Source: Parelaphostrongylus tenuis
Lineage: Eukaryota > Nematoda > Chromadorea > Rhabditida > Metastrongylidae
Direction of reading: 5' to 3'
NCBI GenBank assembly: GCA_019055375.1
Contig: JAHQIW010000188.1
Location: forward strand, 62,001 to 126,000
Length of the DNA: 64,000 nt
The stretch's first letter is position 1. Each line of letters begins with the position of its first letter. Shown here piece by piece: positions 12,856 through 52,083 of the stretch. The notes beneath the pieces were generated by a model. That model did not search any database. It had not been told where the DNA came from and saw only the letters and a program-made list of their open reading frames with translations. The position numbers and the translations under genes were made by a program.

Positions 12856-12958
12856 ACTCTAAAATTTTCTTTTATTTCGAGTGCTTCATTAAGACCACGT
12901 CAAATTTCAATAAATCTTTTTATTATTATTTGAGCCAACTTGTCATGTGCTCTGGTAA

Positions 12959-13020
12959 GGGCTCTTGTACAGCCCGATACACGTGCTTCGTCCTTACAGA
13001 CTCGCCAGTCGGGCAGAACC
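12959..13020 (-). pseudogene. Degraded hammerhead, family 1 copy A left arm
   Basis: On the - strand the core reads CUGGCGA and the second box GAAG, so two essential positions are changed. Stem II and stem I are still recognisable. Predicted inactive. Confidence 0.75.
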
Positions 13021-13190
13021 CGTCGTCTTTCGATATTTTTATAGTCAGTTCTCTCGGGAGCTCTGCTCCCTTACAGAGAACGAAGTCGAACGTTTTACAC
13101 TCTATGTCAAGCGAAATTTTCACCTAACACAGAGCGTTTTCGCATCGATTGCTCTTTGGCTGGTATTTTTATCATATATCGAAAGACGAC

Positions 13191-13253
13191 AGGTTGTGCC
13201 CGACTGACGAGTCTGTAATGACGAAACACGTGTATCGGGCTGTACAAGAGCCC
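13191..13253 (+). ncRNA. Type I hammerhead ribozyme, family 1 copy A right arm
   Basis: The core is CUGACGA at 13204-13210. Stem II is GUC/GAC (13211-13213 with 13220-13222), then GAAA at 13223-13226. The short stem III is A-U and C-G around an ACGU loop. The cleavage triplet is GUA, with cutting expected after 13234. Stem I pairs GCCCGA with UCGGGC over all six positions. A UGUACA bulge lies on the 3' side of stem I. All core positions needed for activity are present; the outer stem I is weakened. Confidence 0.85.
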
Positions 13254-13310
13254 TTACCAGACCACATGACAAGTTGGCTTAAATAATAATGAAAGGATCT
13301 AGAATTTTCT

Positions 13311-30470: not shown

Positions 30471-30505
30471 GGCTGACGTTTCGGCGATCCGCCTTCTTCA
30501 GAGCC
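30471..30505 (-). ncRNA. Hammerhead-like motif, palindrome left arm
   Basis: Mirror image of the right-arm motif on the - strand. It differs by one base in the stem II loop (GGAUC for GGGUC). Stems and core are otherwise the same, including the extra A. Confidence 0.58.
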
Positions 30506-30544
30506 TGGACGTATATAGTATTAGTCAAATACTATATACGTCCA

Positions 30545-30579
30545 GGCTCTGAAGAAGGCGGGTCGCCGAAACGTCAGCC
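30545..30579 (+). ncRNA. Hammerhead-like motif, palindrome right arm
   Basis: CUGAAGA at 30549-30555, GGC/GCC stem II (30557-30559 with 30565-30567), GAAA at 30568-30571, then CGUC with the cut expected after 30575. Stem I is GGCU/AGCC, four pairs. One extra A (30556) sits between the core and stem II, which may lower activity. Confidence 0.6.
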
Positions 30580-32690: not shown

Positions 32691-34146
32691 TGCAGTCTTC
32701 TCAGTCAAATATTATCGTAACCTCTGCGGAAAGACGCAATAAACACATTTGGCATAGCATAGCAAAAAGCTTGACTGACTGATTGGTGATAACGATATTA
32801 AGGCAAAGACGGCTTACAGTATATCATAACGTTTTCATCTTTCTTCCATGCGCTCAATATGAGTAATACTAAAATTTCTCTTTTATCTTTTTCAGATTGT
32901 TTGCAATGTAGTGTATTGTGGTGCGCTTCCCAGTGACTGATCAGTCCCCAAGTAATGCACTTGATTGTTGATGATGTCAAATGGCCGCCATTAAAGTATC
33001 TATTCGTGTTCATTCAAACCAAGGCTAATAAGCTCAGCTTACACAAAAACTCGGAAAGGTTTACTACTAATCATACAGATGTCGAACGCTGTTTTGCACC
33101 CCAGTCATGACGAGGTTAATAGATATAGCGGGTGGGAGTGGGTGAAGCTACGAAATCTTGAGAGTCCATAAATTTGAACCACCAATGTTTTTACTAGCCC
33201 CGCAGGATCATTAACGCGATCGAGGCATGAAATAGCAATCGGTTTCTTTCATGAACAACTGCATTAATAATGACCTAGGGAGTTCATTTGCCATAACAAC
33301 GAAATGTGAGGAAGTATAAGTAGATTAAAACGATAACTGGAACGATGAAAAAGGTTTTTTTTAGATTATCAGCACATAGAGCACCGAATGAGAAGCGCCG
33401 AGATATTATTCAACAATTATAGAGGCGTTTCATAACATGGAAAACCAGCGGCTGAAAGAATTTCAATATGAGGTGAGCTTAAACGCAATGGTGCTGTGCA
33501 AATAGATGTAGATTAAAATCACCACAAAAATTTTCATCTATTTGTTCATTTGTGAATGCGGTTATTTGTTGGAGGACATGGAAGATAGAAATAAAGTATA
33601 TTGGATTGTTAAATGTTCATGAATGGAAAAAATACATTGTCAGCTAACAGAATATTTGATCGAGGAAGAAATTTTATGATAAGTTCGGACATATTTATGA
33701 TTAAGCGCAAGAGGATCATCACTATGAACTTATTAGTGCCTCTAAAAAAATGTGAAATCTAGGGGTTATTTAAAACATAAGATGGTTATCATCAAGAAGG
33801 TACCAATGTGTGTCCAGAACTATAAATCGTGAAATACGTTTTCGCAAATATATGCTGGATTTCTTTTTTGGCACATGAGATAGCCGATGTTTCTTCCTAA
33901 TTCGCCTTTTGTTTGCTTTTCAATCAGTTAGACTCATTCGATTGATGAATACAGGATCTACATTTCTGCATTTTTCATACAGGTGGTTATGGTTATTGTT
34001 ACGGTTGCTACTGTTTGTATCTTTCCCCTGTGATCCCAGCAGCGTTTTTGTTATTGATTAAAACCTATGGCGGTATATGGTGCATCACGCTCAAAACGAC
34101 AGAATTCCATTGATAGGTGATGATGTCTTTTCAATGTGATAGCATG

Positions 34147-34500
34147 CTTTGAGCCCCTCATGAGGTCTGTCATAGTACTACTATAGTGCAAGACACGTGT
34201 TTCGACATTACAACTTTATCAGTTGCGCGGTGCCTTTCGGTTCAGTCAGTTCCTCAGGGACACATCGCCTTTATGGAGGTTATAACGCCGAATTGTTCAC
34301 ACTCGGCGTAAGGTGGAAGAATCACCGTGGCGCTTTTTCAAAGTGATTGATTGTCGATTGCATGGCTTACGGCTGTCACAGAGCGAAGAACTGACTCAAC
34401 CGAAAGGCACCGTGCAACTGATGAGTCTGTAAGGCCGAAACATATGTCTTGTGCACTATATAAGTGCCATAAGGAAACTTATTTATGTCTCAAGCGAGGT
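34147..34500. mobile_element. Family 2 hammerhead element near 34.3 kb
   Basis: Left arm from CTTTGAGCCCCTCATGAGGT; body with CGGTTCAGTCAGTTCC and ACACTCGGCGTAAGG; right arm from CTGACTCAACCGAAAGGCAC. The arms are inverted copies. The left hammerhead (34178-34240, - strand) has CUGAUAA for CUGAUGA and a weak stem II, so it is predicted inactive although GAAACACGUGUC is intact. Confidence 0.72.
34406..34468 (+). ncRNA. Hammerhead ribozyme, family 2, 34.4 kb right arm
   Basis: CUGAUGA at 34418-34424; stem II GUC/GCC around UGUAAG with one U-C mismatch; GAAA at 34437-34440; stem III with AUAU loop; GUC, cut expected after 34448. Stem I starts GUGCAA with UUG...CAC, where a two-base insertion disturbs the 3' side. 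Outer pairs GGCAC/GUGCC enclose a UAUAUAA bulge. Probably functional or recently so. Confidence 0.72.
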
Positions 34501-35980: not shown

Positions 35981-36086
35981 TCTCTTCATAGCATACCTTT
36001 CCTTCGAGTGCTTTATTAAGACCACGCTCAAATTTCAATAGATCCTTTCATTATTATTTGAGCCAACATGTCATGTGGTCTGGTAA

Positions 36087-36149
36087 AGGCTCTTGTACAG
36101 CCCGAGACACGTGTTTCGTCCTTACAGACTCATCAGCCGGGCAGAACCC
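36087..36149 (-). ncRNA. Type I hammerhead ribozyme, family 1 copy C unit 1
   Basis: The - strand has CUGAUGA, stem II GUC/GAC around UGUAAG, GAAA, stem III with ACGU loop and GUC (cut between 36106 and 36105). Stem I pairs GCCCGG with UCGGGC (one G-U), then a UGUACA bulge, then seven outer pairs GGGUUCU/AGAGCCU including wobbles. Complete. Confidence 0.9.
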
Positions 36150-36409
36150 GTCGTCTGTCGATCTTTTCATAGTCAGTTCTCTTGGGAGCGTCACACTCCT
36201 CATATATAGTTATCGACGACCTATGCTTTACACTCTATGTCAGGTGTCTATGTCATTCACCTAACACAGAGTGTTTTCGCACTCGATTGCTAGCTGGCTG
36301 GTATTTTATCATATTATACCTTTCCTTCGAGTGCTTTATTAAGACCACGCTCAAATTTCAATAGATCCTTTCATTATTATTTGAGCCAACATGTCATGTG
36401 GTCTGGTAA

Positions 36410-36470
36410 AGGCTCTTGTACAGCCCGAGACACGTGTTTCGTCCTTACAGACTCATCAGCCGGGCAGAAC
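36410..36470 (-). ncRNA. Type I hammerhead ribozyme, family 1 copy C unit 2
   Basis: Identical core to the ribozyme 323 bases to the left, with the cut expected between 36429 and 36428. Only the outermost stem I base pairs are lost, where the sequence switches to the inverted copy. Together with unit 1 it would free a 323-nt RNA from a - strand transcript. Confidence 0.88.
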
Positions 36471-36521
36471 GAGTGAGTGACGCTCCCAAGAGAACTGACT
36501 ATGAAAAGATCGACAAACGAC

Positions 36522-36584
36522 GGGTTCTGCCCGGCTGATGAGTCTGTAAGGACGAAACACGTGTCTCGGGCTGTACAAGAGCCT
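36522..36584 (+). ncRNA. Type I hammerhead ribozyme, family 1 copy C inverted arm
   Basis: The same ribozyme on the + strand: CUGAUGA at 36535-36541, GAAA at 36554-36557, cut expected after 36565. All stems match the - strand copies, so either transcript of this locus carries an active-looking motif. Confidence 0.9.
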
Positions 36585-36644
36585 TTACCAGACCACATGA
36601 CATGTTGGCTCAAATAATAATGAAAGGATCTCTTCATAGCTTTA

Positions 36645-37194: not shown

Positions 37195-38260
37195 TTTCTG
37201 TTGAACAAAGACTTTCCATTGCCTTTTGGTAACCATTCGAAAGCTTAAATCTATAATTACTGCTCTACGTAGCCGCTTTCAAATTATTGCTATAGCAGAA
37301 AGATAACTTTTGTGTATCACACATGTATATTTCTCGTAGAACAGAACTTTTTCCTTAGCTTATAAGTAAACATTCGATAGACTAAGTTTCGAGATTACAA
37401 TACTGTGCTTATTTTTCTGTTCAGCAGCTTTTTATAGACGCCTCTCAATACGATAGTTTTCTGGTAATGATATAACAAGTTTTGAGCCGTTAAGGTCTAA
37501 GTGCTGGACAGGCGCCTGTTTCCTCCTACGTGGACACCTCAGTAGCACACTCCCTCGGTTCAGCCGGTTCCTTGAGGCTATATTCCTCTGTGAAAAAATC
37601 GACGCCGAGTAATAATCACCGAAAGTCAGATTTATTGATTTATTACTCGACATCGATTCCTTCAAAGTGGAGTATCGCCTCAAGGGATCGACTGAACCGA
37701 GGGAGTGTGCTACTGAGATATCCAGGTAATATAAAACAGGCGCTTGTCTAACACTTAGACCTTACGGCTCAAAACATGTCATATCGTTATCAAAGCACTA
37801 ATTGCGTTTGTTATCTGGCAAGACCGTTTCAGTGAAGTGTGGCAGAAAAATACGATAGAGTTTCACATACGTGGGCATTTGTTTGTTGGCTAATGTGTGA
37901 GCTGGCTAGTGGCCGTGAATTCGTTACGACGTTCCCCGATAGATTGATTGACCGCGTTTGAGCAATTGACATGTGGAGTGCATTTTTTTGCTATCAAATT
38001 TGGAGTTTCTTCTACGCTTTGACAGAATTTTGATGTAAAACGTATGACTCTTATACTACAGAATTTCCTCTGCACGCTCACAAGTTTTTCGCGCTTCCAA
38101 CGAAGTAATAATGATAGCGCGATTGGTCTAAAAGATTATTTTTTTTGAAGGCTACAACGTTATAAAAAAGGCTTTCTCAAAAAACGGCCACGCAGCGTAA
38201 TAGTCAGAAATTCAAGCTTTCGAATAATCATTGACACTACGGTAAAAAGTTTTTGTTAAG
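37195..38260. repeat. Inverted-repeat element F4, copy 2, with nested family 2 insertion
   Basis: Arms near 37205-37290 (CATTCGAAAGCTTAAATCT) and 38175-38255 (AGATTTCAAGC-type complement). The stretch 37290-37420 matches 28420-28690 of copy 1 in order. The family 2 element at 37455-37815 splits it, which explains its greater length. Confidence 0.55.
37455..37815. mobile_element. Family 2 hammerhead element nested in an F4 element
   Basis: Long inverted ends (TTTTGAGCCGTTAAGGTCTA on the left, TAGACCTTACGGCTCAAAAC on the right) extend outward into AATGATATAACA / GATATGAC. Each arm has a longer stem III (ACAGGC with GCCTGT) ending in GUC. The first box is CUGAGGU or CUGAGAU, so both cores are broken. 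It sits inside the inverted element at 37195-38260. Confidence 0.65.
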
Positions 38261-43069: not shown

Positions 43070-43316
43070 AGTCTGGATTCTTTTCATTTGACTGCCTCTT
43101 GCAGTGGTATGATGTTATAGTATACCCAATATGTGGAGTACTGTGCAAGAACGTTTGCGTCAGCCGGGATTCGAACCCAGATCTCACTCTTTCCGGGTGT
43201 GCATGCTAACCATTGCACTTCCGACGCTCGTTCTGCACAGCACTCGGAAAGAGTGAGATCTGGGTTCAAATCCCGGCTGACGCAAACGTTTTTGCACAGT
43301 ACTCCACATATTGGGT
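43070..43316. mobile_element. Inverted tRNA-like element (type T1) near 43.2 kb
   Basis: The left end reads GTATACCCAATATGTGGAGT and the right end is its inverse. The left arm has a full tRNA-like sequence; the right arm keeps only its 3' half (43241-43283). A 13-base direct repeat (ATACTAGGAGATC, 43057-43069 and 43317-43329) flanks the insertion. Confidence 0.75.
43157..43227 (-). tRNA. tRNA-like arm of T1 element, anticodon position GGA, not a standard tRNA gene
   Basis: It folds as a cloverleaf: acceptor GCGUCGG/CUGACGC, D arm, T arm with UUCGAAU loop. The anticodon loop would read CCGGAAA, so GGA stands at the anticodon, but a serine tRNA should have a long variable arm and this has a short one. 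The invariant U33 is C. It is part of a repeat, so it is more likely a Pol III promoter carrier than a decoding tRNA. Confidence 0.5.
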
Positions 43317-46861: not shown

Positions 46862-47231
46862 CCCTAAGAGAACTGAGTGGGGAGCAAACATACGGCCAGG
46901 CGGGAATCGAACCCGCGTTTTATCCTATTCGGGGACACGTGCTTTACCACTACACCAGCGAGGCACATTTGCACCACCACTCATTCTTCAAGATCTCTAT
47001 GATAGGTATCAGCCACCAACCTTTAACAGGTTTGGTCGGGTATGTGATTTTGATTTATAAACCCAGTTGAGCTGACAGCTACTGTAAGATTTAGCATTGA
47101 AATGTTGAAAAATGACTGGTCAGGCAAATGATCCTCGGTGGTGTAGTTGTAGAGCACGCGCCTCCGGATAGGATGAAACGCGGATTCGATTCCCGCCTGA
47201 GGTAGTGTTTTTGCCCACAACTCAGTCCTCA
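46862..47231. mobile_element. Inverted tRNA-like element (type T2) near 47 kb
   Basis: Ends CCTAAGAGAACTGAGTGGGG and CCACAACTCAGTCCTCATAGG are inverted. It contains a - strand tRNA-like arm (46893-46964, T-loop side GGGTTCGATTCCC) and a + strand one (47132-47204). The sequence just left of it (46798-46861) matches the left flank of the T2 copy at 60281, so the true element may be longer. Confidence 0.72.
47132..47204 (+). tRNA. tRNA-like arm of T2 element
   Basis: CCUCGG pairs with CUGAGG in the acceptor. A box GGTGTAGTTGTAGAG and B box GGATTCGATTCCC are visible. The anticodon arm does not form five clean pairs. Repeat-borne, probably non-decoding. Confidence 0.4.
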
Positions 47232-51597: not shown

Positions 51598-52083
51598 GCA
51601 GCAACGATGCCAATATCCAATATGTGGAGTACTGTGCAAAAACGTTTTGCGTCAGCCGGGATTCGAACCCAGATCTCACTCTTTCCGGGATTTGAACCCA
51701 GACCTCACAGTACTCCACAAATTGGTTATACTATAAGATCATACCAGTGCAAGTGGCAGTCAAAATACAAAGAATTTAGACTGATTATCGATATCCATTG
51801 TTTGTCAACACAAGTGGGTTCAATGCCGATAACGGCTGCCCCGCCAGACCGTCGACGGTTGGCTGTTGGCAGACAACGCGTTATAGCGTAAATAAGAGTG
51901 TTGTGCAGCGAGCGTCGGTAGTGCAACGGTTAGCATACGCTCCTGGAAAGAGTGAGATCTGGGTTCGAATCCCGGCTGACGGAAAACGTTTTTGCACAGT
52001 ACTCCACATATTGGGTATACTATAAGATCATACCACTGCAAGTGGCAGTCAAAATAGAAAGAATTTAGACTGATTATCGATAC
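51598..52083. mobile_element. Inverted tRNA-like elements (type T1) near 51.8 kb with duplicated flank
   Basis: A truncated - strand arm (51649-51690) and a complete + strand arm (51912-51982) are separated by a region not seen elsewhere. Each is followed by the same 65-70 bases (51727-51794 and 52018-52083, starting TATACTATAAGATCATACCA), so the locus has a tandem component of about 290 bases. It interrupts the second copy of the 3-kb duplication, so it arrived after that duplication. Confidence 0.7.
51912..51982 (+). tRNA. tRNA-like arm of T1 element, best-preserved cloverleaf
   Basis: Acceptor GCGUCGG pairs with CUGACG(G), D arm GUGC/GCAU, anticodon arm CGCUC/GAGUG with loop CUGGAAA (U33 present, anticodon GGA), T arm CUGGG/CCCGG with UUCGAAU. 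A and B boxes for RNA polymerase III are intact. The short variable arm argues against a working tRNA-Ser. Confidence 0.55.

What the first reader, a model, noticed from the sequence alone, without database searches (positions are those of the whole stretch)
12871..13297. Mobile elements built from two outward-reading hammerhead ribozymes in inverted arms
Family 1 copies carry complete type I hammerheads: CUGANGA, three-pair stem II, GAAA, a two-pair stem III with a four-base loop, NUH cleavage site, six-pair stem I and a UGUACA bulge suited to loop-loop contact. In copies A and C the ribozymes sit in inverted arms on opposite strands, both pointing out of the element, so a transcript of either strand can cut itself. 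Hammerheads in schistosome and other animal repeats and in Penelope-like elements are known; an element organised as an outward-facing inverted pair in a nematode is, as far as I know, not described. That novelty is inference.
Basis: partly seen in the sequence, partly recalled or inferred. Interest (0 to 1): 0.92.

Follow-up and report, generated by a model that had tools for sequence, protein, structure and literature searches.

The report
Ribozyme retroelements copied by Penelope machinery
Short self-cutting RNA elements in a roundworm genome show the same unusual double-ended insertion scar as the resident Penelope retrotransposons, which points to the enzyme that copies them; the head-to-head pairs that were flagged look like products of insertion, not a special kind of element.

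Summary
The hammerheads are real: Rfam Hammerhead_1 is above cut-off at four window sites, and copy C has intact ones on both strands. Copy A (the given coordinates) has one intact hammerhead; its minus-strand one is broken in the core. The outward-facing pair is not a fixed design. The element is a ~320-bp non-coding unit of the metazoan retrozyme type. One insertion, usually with a short target duplication, may hold one arm, two head-to-head arms or a tandem. Outer ends sit at two points about 50 nt apart (alpha, beta), beta in the loop of a stem. Of 78 two-armed insertions examined (two retrozyme families and resident Penelope elements), 69 have one alpha and one beta end, 1 has two alphas, 7 end elsewhere on one side, 1 was unscorable. 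Penelope elements here (RT + GIY-YIG, minimal hammerhead) share the head-to-head arms, ends and stem layout. In vitro a Penelope protein starts reverse transcription at two adjacent internal sites and extends both target strands (PMC11167929). So these are most likely retrozymes mobilised by Penelope enzymes, a link argued in the papers I saw only from co-occurrence. New variant of a known kind.

The parts
12863..12870 (.). left target-site duplication AATTTTCT of copy A
12871..13177 (-). copy A, minus-sense arm (one retrozyme unit), outer end alpha
12972..13014 (-). hammerhead of copy A minus arm, core broken (CTGGCGA, GAAG)
13178..13302 (+). copy A, plus-sense inverted arm, outer end beta
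13198..13240 (+). intact type I hammerhead of copy A, predicted cleavage after 13234
13303..13310 (.). right target-site duplication AATTTTCT of copy A
24586..24949 (.). copy B, older insertion: minus arm ending at beta, short plus arm ending at alpha; intact hammerhead 24651-24693(-)
34143..34468 (.). copy E, old diverged head-to-head copy of the same kind, hammerheads degenerate
35981..35992 (.). left target-site duplication TCTCTTCATAGC of copy C
35993..36470 (-). copy C, minus arm: about 1.5 tandem units, outer end alpha; hammerheads 36100-36142 and 36423-36465
36477..36628 (+). copy C, plus inverted arm, outer end beta; hammerhead 36529-36571, predicted cleavage after 36565
36629..36640 (.). 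right target-site duplication TCTCTTCATAGC of copy C
62950..63338 (.). copy D: minus arm ending at beta with hammerhead 63009-63051, short plus arm (about 63287-63338) ending at alpha, no hammerhead on the plus arm; TSD CCATTGATA at 62941-62949 and 63339-63347
30472..30578 (.). Penelope-like element remnant: two head-to-head minimal hammerheads

Best explanation
These are non-autonomous retrozymes (circular or multimeric hammerhead RNAs of about 320 nt) that are inserted by the protein of resident Penelope-like elements (PLEs). The hammerhead cuts multimeric transcripts (inferred). A PLE reverse transcriptase/endonuclease recognises a stem 3' of the hammerhead (inferred), cuts both strands of an AT-rich target a few bases apart, and starts cDNA internally on the RNA at two sites: beta, in the loop of the stem, and alpha, about 50 nt further 3'. 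One target strand is extended from alpha and the other from beta. The two cDNAs run backwards along the RNA, sometimes more than one turn, and are joined at variable places, often with a few filler bases. The result is a head-to-head pair with outward-reading hammerheads and a target duplication of about 7-16 bp; if one cDNA is lost or never made, a single arm results. Shown: end sites, one-alpha-one-beta rule, TSDs, variable junctions, the same signature in PLEs of the same genome. Inferred: PLE protein as the agent, ribozyme activity and its role, RNA form of the template.
For: (1) Two outer ends, one of each per two-armed insertion. F1 old set, 42 loci: 28 alpha-beta, 1 alpha-alpha, 0 beta-beta, 5 alpha-other, 8 one-armed. 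F1 young set, 27 loci: 17 alpha-beta, 1 alpha-other, 9 one-armed. A second young sample drawn with a query ending at beta, 16 new loci: 7 alpha-beta, 0 beta-beta, 9 one-armed beta, three of which share one TSD. F2, 8 two-armed loci: 7 with one end past the stem and one in its loop, 1 other (by eye). (2) TSDs: an own word >=7 in 23 of 27 young and 24 of 42 old loci, against 3.8% of 390 and 4.5% of 618 swapped flanks; words >=8 are 75% AT (the window is 61% AT). (3) Resident PLEs: 150 GIY-YIG hits scored of 1723 candidates; by my count of the table 20 opposite-strand neighbours within 6 kb, minus-left/plus-right in 20 of 20. Three PLE loci fetched: frames of 893, 902 and 550 aa, each with RVT_1 + GIY-YIG, beside minimal hammerheads. 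Outer ends of 11 of the 20 pairs were read: 10 alpha-beta, 1 not scorable (by eye). (4) Like cis layout. PLE: cleavage to beta 66 nt, to alpha 103 nt, stem ACCTCG..CGAGGT around beta (fold). F1: about 63 and 113 nt, stem AGACCAC..GCTCAAAT / ATTTGAGC..GTGGTCT (fold). F2: about 41-46 and 95 nt, stem AGACC..GCTCAAAA / TTTTGAGC..GGTCT. (5) PMC11167929: purified Anolis PLE protein cleaves and extends both target strands and starts at two adjacent internal sites that bound the genomic 'tail'; from its numbers (cut 26, start 111-118 in the ORF) one start lies 85-92 nt after the hammerhead cut.
Against: No biochemical test. The same paper saw no difference in start site between top and bottom strands, whereas here a two-armed insertion uses one of each; and there hammerhead mutants did not affect insertion and no reads ended at the cleavage site, so the ribozyme need not act in insertion. 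Stem sequences of retrozyme and PLE differ, and the shared short motif before alpha (CA-G/C-TCG) is weak. F2 spacing is shorter; of five F2 stretches folded, the inner stem is in the predicted fold but the outer AGACC/GGTCT part clearly in only two (by eye). 7 of 78 two-armed insertions end elsewhere on one side. All loci are best-scoring ones, not a random sample. A cluster of inner 5' ends 15-46 nt after the cleavage site in young copies (18 of 45; second young set 11 of 21 by my count) was not reproduced in the old family (10 of 78 in the 47 nt after the cleavage site, expected 11.5), so the form of the template stays open.
Confidence: 0.8

Rival explanations
1. Twin priming by a LINE: the second target strand primes inside the RNA and yields a 5' inversion.
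For: Head-to-head arms with TSD and variable inner joints are what twin priming makes (recalled). Some open frames in the window look to me like LINE reverse transcriptase (not scanned against a library).
Against: Twin priming puts the outer end of the inverted arm at arbitrary internal places (recalled); here it lies at beta in 69 of 78 two-armed insertions examined, and resident PLEs have such ends. In several insertions both arms copy the same stretch of RNA.
Confidence: 0.1
2. Snap-back self-priming on an antisense template, as proposed for Penelope inverted repeats in Adineta (PMC3846280).
For: Head-to-head arms; palindromes at inverted junctions were reported in Adineta.
Against: Self-priming predicts arms that begin at the same place. 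In 18 young junctions the two arms begin 16-147 nt apart on the unit, in 35 old ones 7-154 nt apart. It does not explain the alpha/beta rule.
Confidence: 0.05
3. One reading: a fold-back element whose design is two inverted arms with outward hammerheads, moved as a unit.
For: 16 of 27 young and 14 of 42 old loci have hammerhead cores on both strands.
Against: The 18 young inner junctions listed all differ. One-armed insertions make up 9 of 27 and 9 of 16 young loci; a flank word of 7 or more is shared in 6 of the first 9 and 8 of the second 9. The two ends differ, and tandem arrays of the unit exist.
Confidence: 0.03

Closest known systems
Metazoan non-LTR retrozymes (Cervera & de la Pena 2020, PMC7229834; abstract and passages seen)
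   Same: Small repeats (170-400 nt) with canonical type I hammerheads, multiple copies, low GC, no LTR, TSDs larger than 4 bp.
   Different: The words nematod-, inverted and 'target site' occur 0 times in its main text. The PLE as mobiliser is argued there from co-existence, hammerheads and tandem form.
Penelope-like elements, Penelope/Poseidon type (PMC3846280, passages; PMC11167929, parts 1-2 of 4 and passages)
   Same: Head-to-head inverted arms, tail on one end, short TSD, two internal start sites, hammerhead upstream of the start sites, tandem copies.
   Different: PLEs encode RT + GIY-YIG and here carry a minimal hammerhead without stem III; the element is non-coding and carries a complete one.

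Membership tests
Metazoan non-LTR retrozyme | canonical type I hammerhead with stem III | tested here: met
   RF00163 above cut-off; of 62 distinct strings with core + stems II and III, 52 pair 5 or 6 of 6 in stem I; mean 5.16 against 4.29 (max 4.69) after re-dealing strands
Metazoan non-LTR retrozyme | unit of about 170-400 nt, also in tandem | tested here: met
   320-323 bp and about 284 bp for F2; one array of about 10 units by the table
Metazoan non-LTR retrozyme | no protein coding, GC below 50% | tested here: met
   two F1 units: GC 0.43 and 0.40; longest sense frame 51 and 56 aa over four turns (antisense 97 and 157 aa)
Metazoan non-LTR retrozyme | TSD longer than 4 bp | tested here: met
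Metazoan non-LTR retrozyme | expressed as circular RNA | not testable with these tools
   no RNA data
Penelope-like element | ORF with RT and GIY-YIG endonuclease | tested here: not met
   no long sense frame in the F1 units; resident PLEs have it
Penelope-like element | inverted/tandem pLTR arrangement with a 30-40 nt tail on one end and short TSD | tested here: met
   met in kind, tail longer (about 50 nt); resident PLEs 37 nt:

The most novel reading that the evidence does not exclude
Two-armed insertions of retrozyme and PLE alike use the two start sites exclusively, one per target strand: a two-subunit PLE reverse transcriptase holds one RNA stem-loop, gives the alpha site to one cut strand and the beta site to the other, and makes both ends of the insertion by independent priming. 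Retrozymes parasitise it by carrying a copy of this two-site stem-loop.
Probability: 0.55. Interest if true: 0.78.

Novelty: new variant of a known kind. Interest (0 to 1): 0.62.

Why it matters
Which enzyme moves animal retrozymes is open: a 2020 review says the repeats show no conserved motif from which the partner could be deduced (PMC7761336, passage). Here the likely partner leaves its signature in the insertions and in a stem-loop that can be mutated, so the question becomes directly testable in vitro. The one-alpha-one-beta rule is also a sharp constraint on how Penelope elements, whose insertion mechanism is little known (PMC11167929, abstract), make both ends of an insertion.

Tried and rejected
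Same-template test: in the old family the two arms of one insertion are no closer to each other than to other loci (mean rank 0.45, 54 pairs); copies are star-like, so this says nothing. Copy C looked like an exception (0-0.7% between arms), but the loci it was compared with are of the old family, and among the best 40 loci of its own subfamily full units are 96-100% alike, one at 89% excepted; no claim is made.

A first idea that young copies are 'simple units with 50-bp redundancy' (notebook) came from what looks like a 50-bp flank limit of the search; it was dropped once longer flanks were read.

Inner 5' ends as a footprint of hammerhead cleavage: strong in young copies, not reproduced in the old family (the p-value for the second set used 22 ends, my recount gives 21). 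A broad excess between cleavage site and alpha (31 of 45 and 52 of 78, summed from the bins) is post hoc.

Folding of whole elements to judge self-cleavage: uninformative. Exact 30-mer of the hammerhead in IMG/VR: 0 matches. A typed F2 string folded without the stem, but it was not a real sequence and was replaced.

Rows left out. Of the 40 loci scored, 30 were read (29 fetched and copy C); C4995, C3655, C1613, C4968, C3962, C818, C1297, C885, C389 and C4047 were not. From the 30, L102 (mirror of L091 on one contig), L106 (runs off the fetched stretch) and L097 (adjacent diverged pieces) were dropped, giving 27. L071-L081 were superseded by longer cuts of the same loci (L091-L101). Of, 16 loci not seen before were fetched; C1050 (looks like a duplicate of C1052) was not. 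L031 is copy A itself; copy E gave no segments. PLE L113 ends were not scored (left end runs off the stretch).

Literature on novelty: searches (open-licence PMC only). Cervera & de la Pena 2014 (PMC4209133) is not held and was not seen.

Full report
What is there. The window lies in a 481.5-Mb assembly of 5105 contigs. Of 101 relatives of its Penelope protein found, the nearest with a name are from Necator americanus (59%), Ancylostoma ceylanicum and Haemonchus contortus; the very nearest (73%) has no name (best 8000 candidates scored). So the host is a strongylid nematode (inference). Rfam's type I hammerhead model is above cut-off at four places in the window, and 20 of the 31 genome matches listed are above cut-off, a lower bound by the tool's own statement.

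Copies A, B, C and D in the window are insertions of one ~320-bp unit. In the finding's own copy A only the plus-strand hammerhead is intact. Copy C has two intact hammerheads on the minus strand and one on the plus strand.

Anatomy. I mapped 42 old-family loci (39 from the genome, L032-L070, and window copies A, B and D) and 27 young-subfamily loci (26 from the genome and copy C) onto a unit treated as a circle. In the young unit's coordinates (q1-q323 = window 36320-35998, minus strand) alpha is near q307-q19, beta q258-q292 by the classes used; the hammerhead is q179-q221 with cleavage after q215. Of 34 two-armed old loci, 28 are alpha-beta, 1 alpha-alpha, 5 alpha-other; of 18 two-armed young loci, 17 are alpha-beta and 1 alpha-other. 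Because the first queries ended at alpha, I repeated the search with the same unit rotated to end at beta. Of 16 new loci, 7 are alpha-beta, 9 one-armed beta, none beta-beta.

Each insertion looks like a single event: a flank word of at least 7 bases is shared across it in 23 of 27 young loci against 3.8% of swapped flanks (24 of 42 and 4.5% in the old set). The 18 young inner junctions all differ, with gaps or overlaps of up to 27 bases, and the two arms start at unrelated positions (35 old junctions likewise).

A second family. The best Rfam matches in the genome belong to an unrelated hammerhead family F2, unit about 284 bp. After its hammerhead comes a like layout: stem, one end point in its loop, the other beyond the stem. 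Of eight two-armed F2 loci read, seven have one end in the loop and one past the stem, one ends before the stem.

The resident Penelope elements. GIY-YIG hits are common (150 scored of 1723 candidates); by my count of that table 20 neighbouring opposite-strand pairs lie within 6 kb, 20 head-to-head and 0 tail-to-tail. Three loci were fetched: frames of 893, 902 and 550 aa with RVT_1 and GIY-YIG and minimal hammerheads. The outer ends of 11 of the 20 pairs were read: ten show alpha and beta, the eleventh (C411) is truncated on one side and runs into a tandem copy on the other. The two PLE ends lie 37 nt apart in L111, and beta lies inside a stem ACCTCG..CGAGGT, 66 nt after the predicted cleavage site; alpha is at 103 nt. 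In F1 the figures are about 63 and 113 nt.

How it most likely works. Frangieh et al. 2024 (PMC11167929; parts 1 and 2 of 4 read) purified a Penelope protein and found that it cuts and extends both target strands and starts reverse transcription at two adjacent sites inside the RNA, most often in a stem loop, which match the ends of genomic copies (the 'tail'). They saw no strand preference for a site, and ribozyme mutants still inserted. Arkhipova and co-authors 2013 (PMC3846280, passages; authors in part recalled) describe the typical insertion: direct pLTRs plus an adjacent inverted pLTR, a tail optionally on one of the inverted pLTRs, a 9-bp TSD, mostly head-to-head. The retrozymes of this worm reproduce these features. 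The economical reading is that PLE protein copies retrozyme RNA, starting at alpha from one cut strand and at beta from the other. The agent is inferred; the signature is shown.

The self-priming model of the 2013 paper predicts palindromic centres, which these junctions lack. LINE twin priming does not predict a fixed beta end.

What is and is not new. Head-to-head arms and tails are known for PLEs; retrozymes are known in other animals; PLEs were named a 'strong candidate' mobiliser on co-existence, hammerheads and tandem form (PMC7229834, passages), and the lack of a diagnostic motif was stated (PMC7761336, passage). The listings of searches showed no paper reporting retrozymes in nematodes or PLE-type ends on retrozymes; most subscription papers are not held, and few of the listed papers were opened. 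New here, as far as those searches reach, are the PLE insertion signature and start-site stem on two retrozyme families beside PLEs of the same genome, and the near-exclusive one-alpha-one-beta use: 69 of 78 two-armed insertions pooled (F1 old 28 of 34, F1 young 17 of 18, beta-drawn young 7 of 7, F2 7 of 8, PLE 10 of 11), with 1 alpha-alpha, 0 beta-beta, 7 ending elsewhere on one side and 1 unscorable.

Limits. All loci are best-scoring copies, and only 30 of the 40 scored were read. F2 and PLE ends were read by eye. No activity or expression was tested. The template could be a circle or a cut linear dimer; the data do not decide.

Noticed in passing
30472-30578: Rfam mir-8489 matches both strands (52 bits, cut-off 99) exactly over two head-to-head minimal Penelope hammerheads; that miRNA family may derive from such a hairpin.
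   Followed up: partly
L132:1-521: A Penelope arm is truncated and abuts the beta end of a retrozyme head-on, as if the endonuclease had cut at the retrozyme's own end.
   Followed up: no
37501-37548 and 14664-14711: Hammerhead_1 matches below cut-off (26.4 and 22.8 bits): possible further degenerate families.
   Followed up: no
684-755, 43156-43227, 46900-46957, 47132-47204, 51912-51983, 63509-63582: Six tRNA-model matches in 64 kb, several much alike: possibly tRNA-derived SINEs.
   Followed up: no
63688-63780: Short reverse-transcriptase fragment related to the resident Penelope proteins (tblastn E 1e-5).
   Followed up: no
L091 and L102 (contig C3602): The same insertion appears mirrored near both ends of one contig; likely an assembly palindrome. 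C1050 looks alike in the table.
   Followed up: partly
L016, about 941-1202: A third hammerhead family (GGGTCA..TGACCC) in a head-to-head pair.
   Followed up: no
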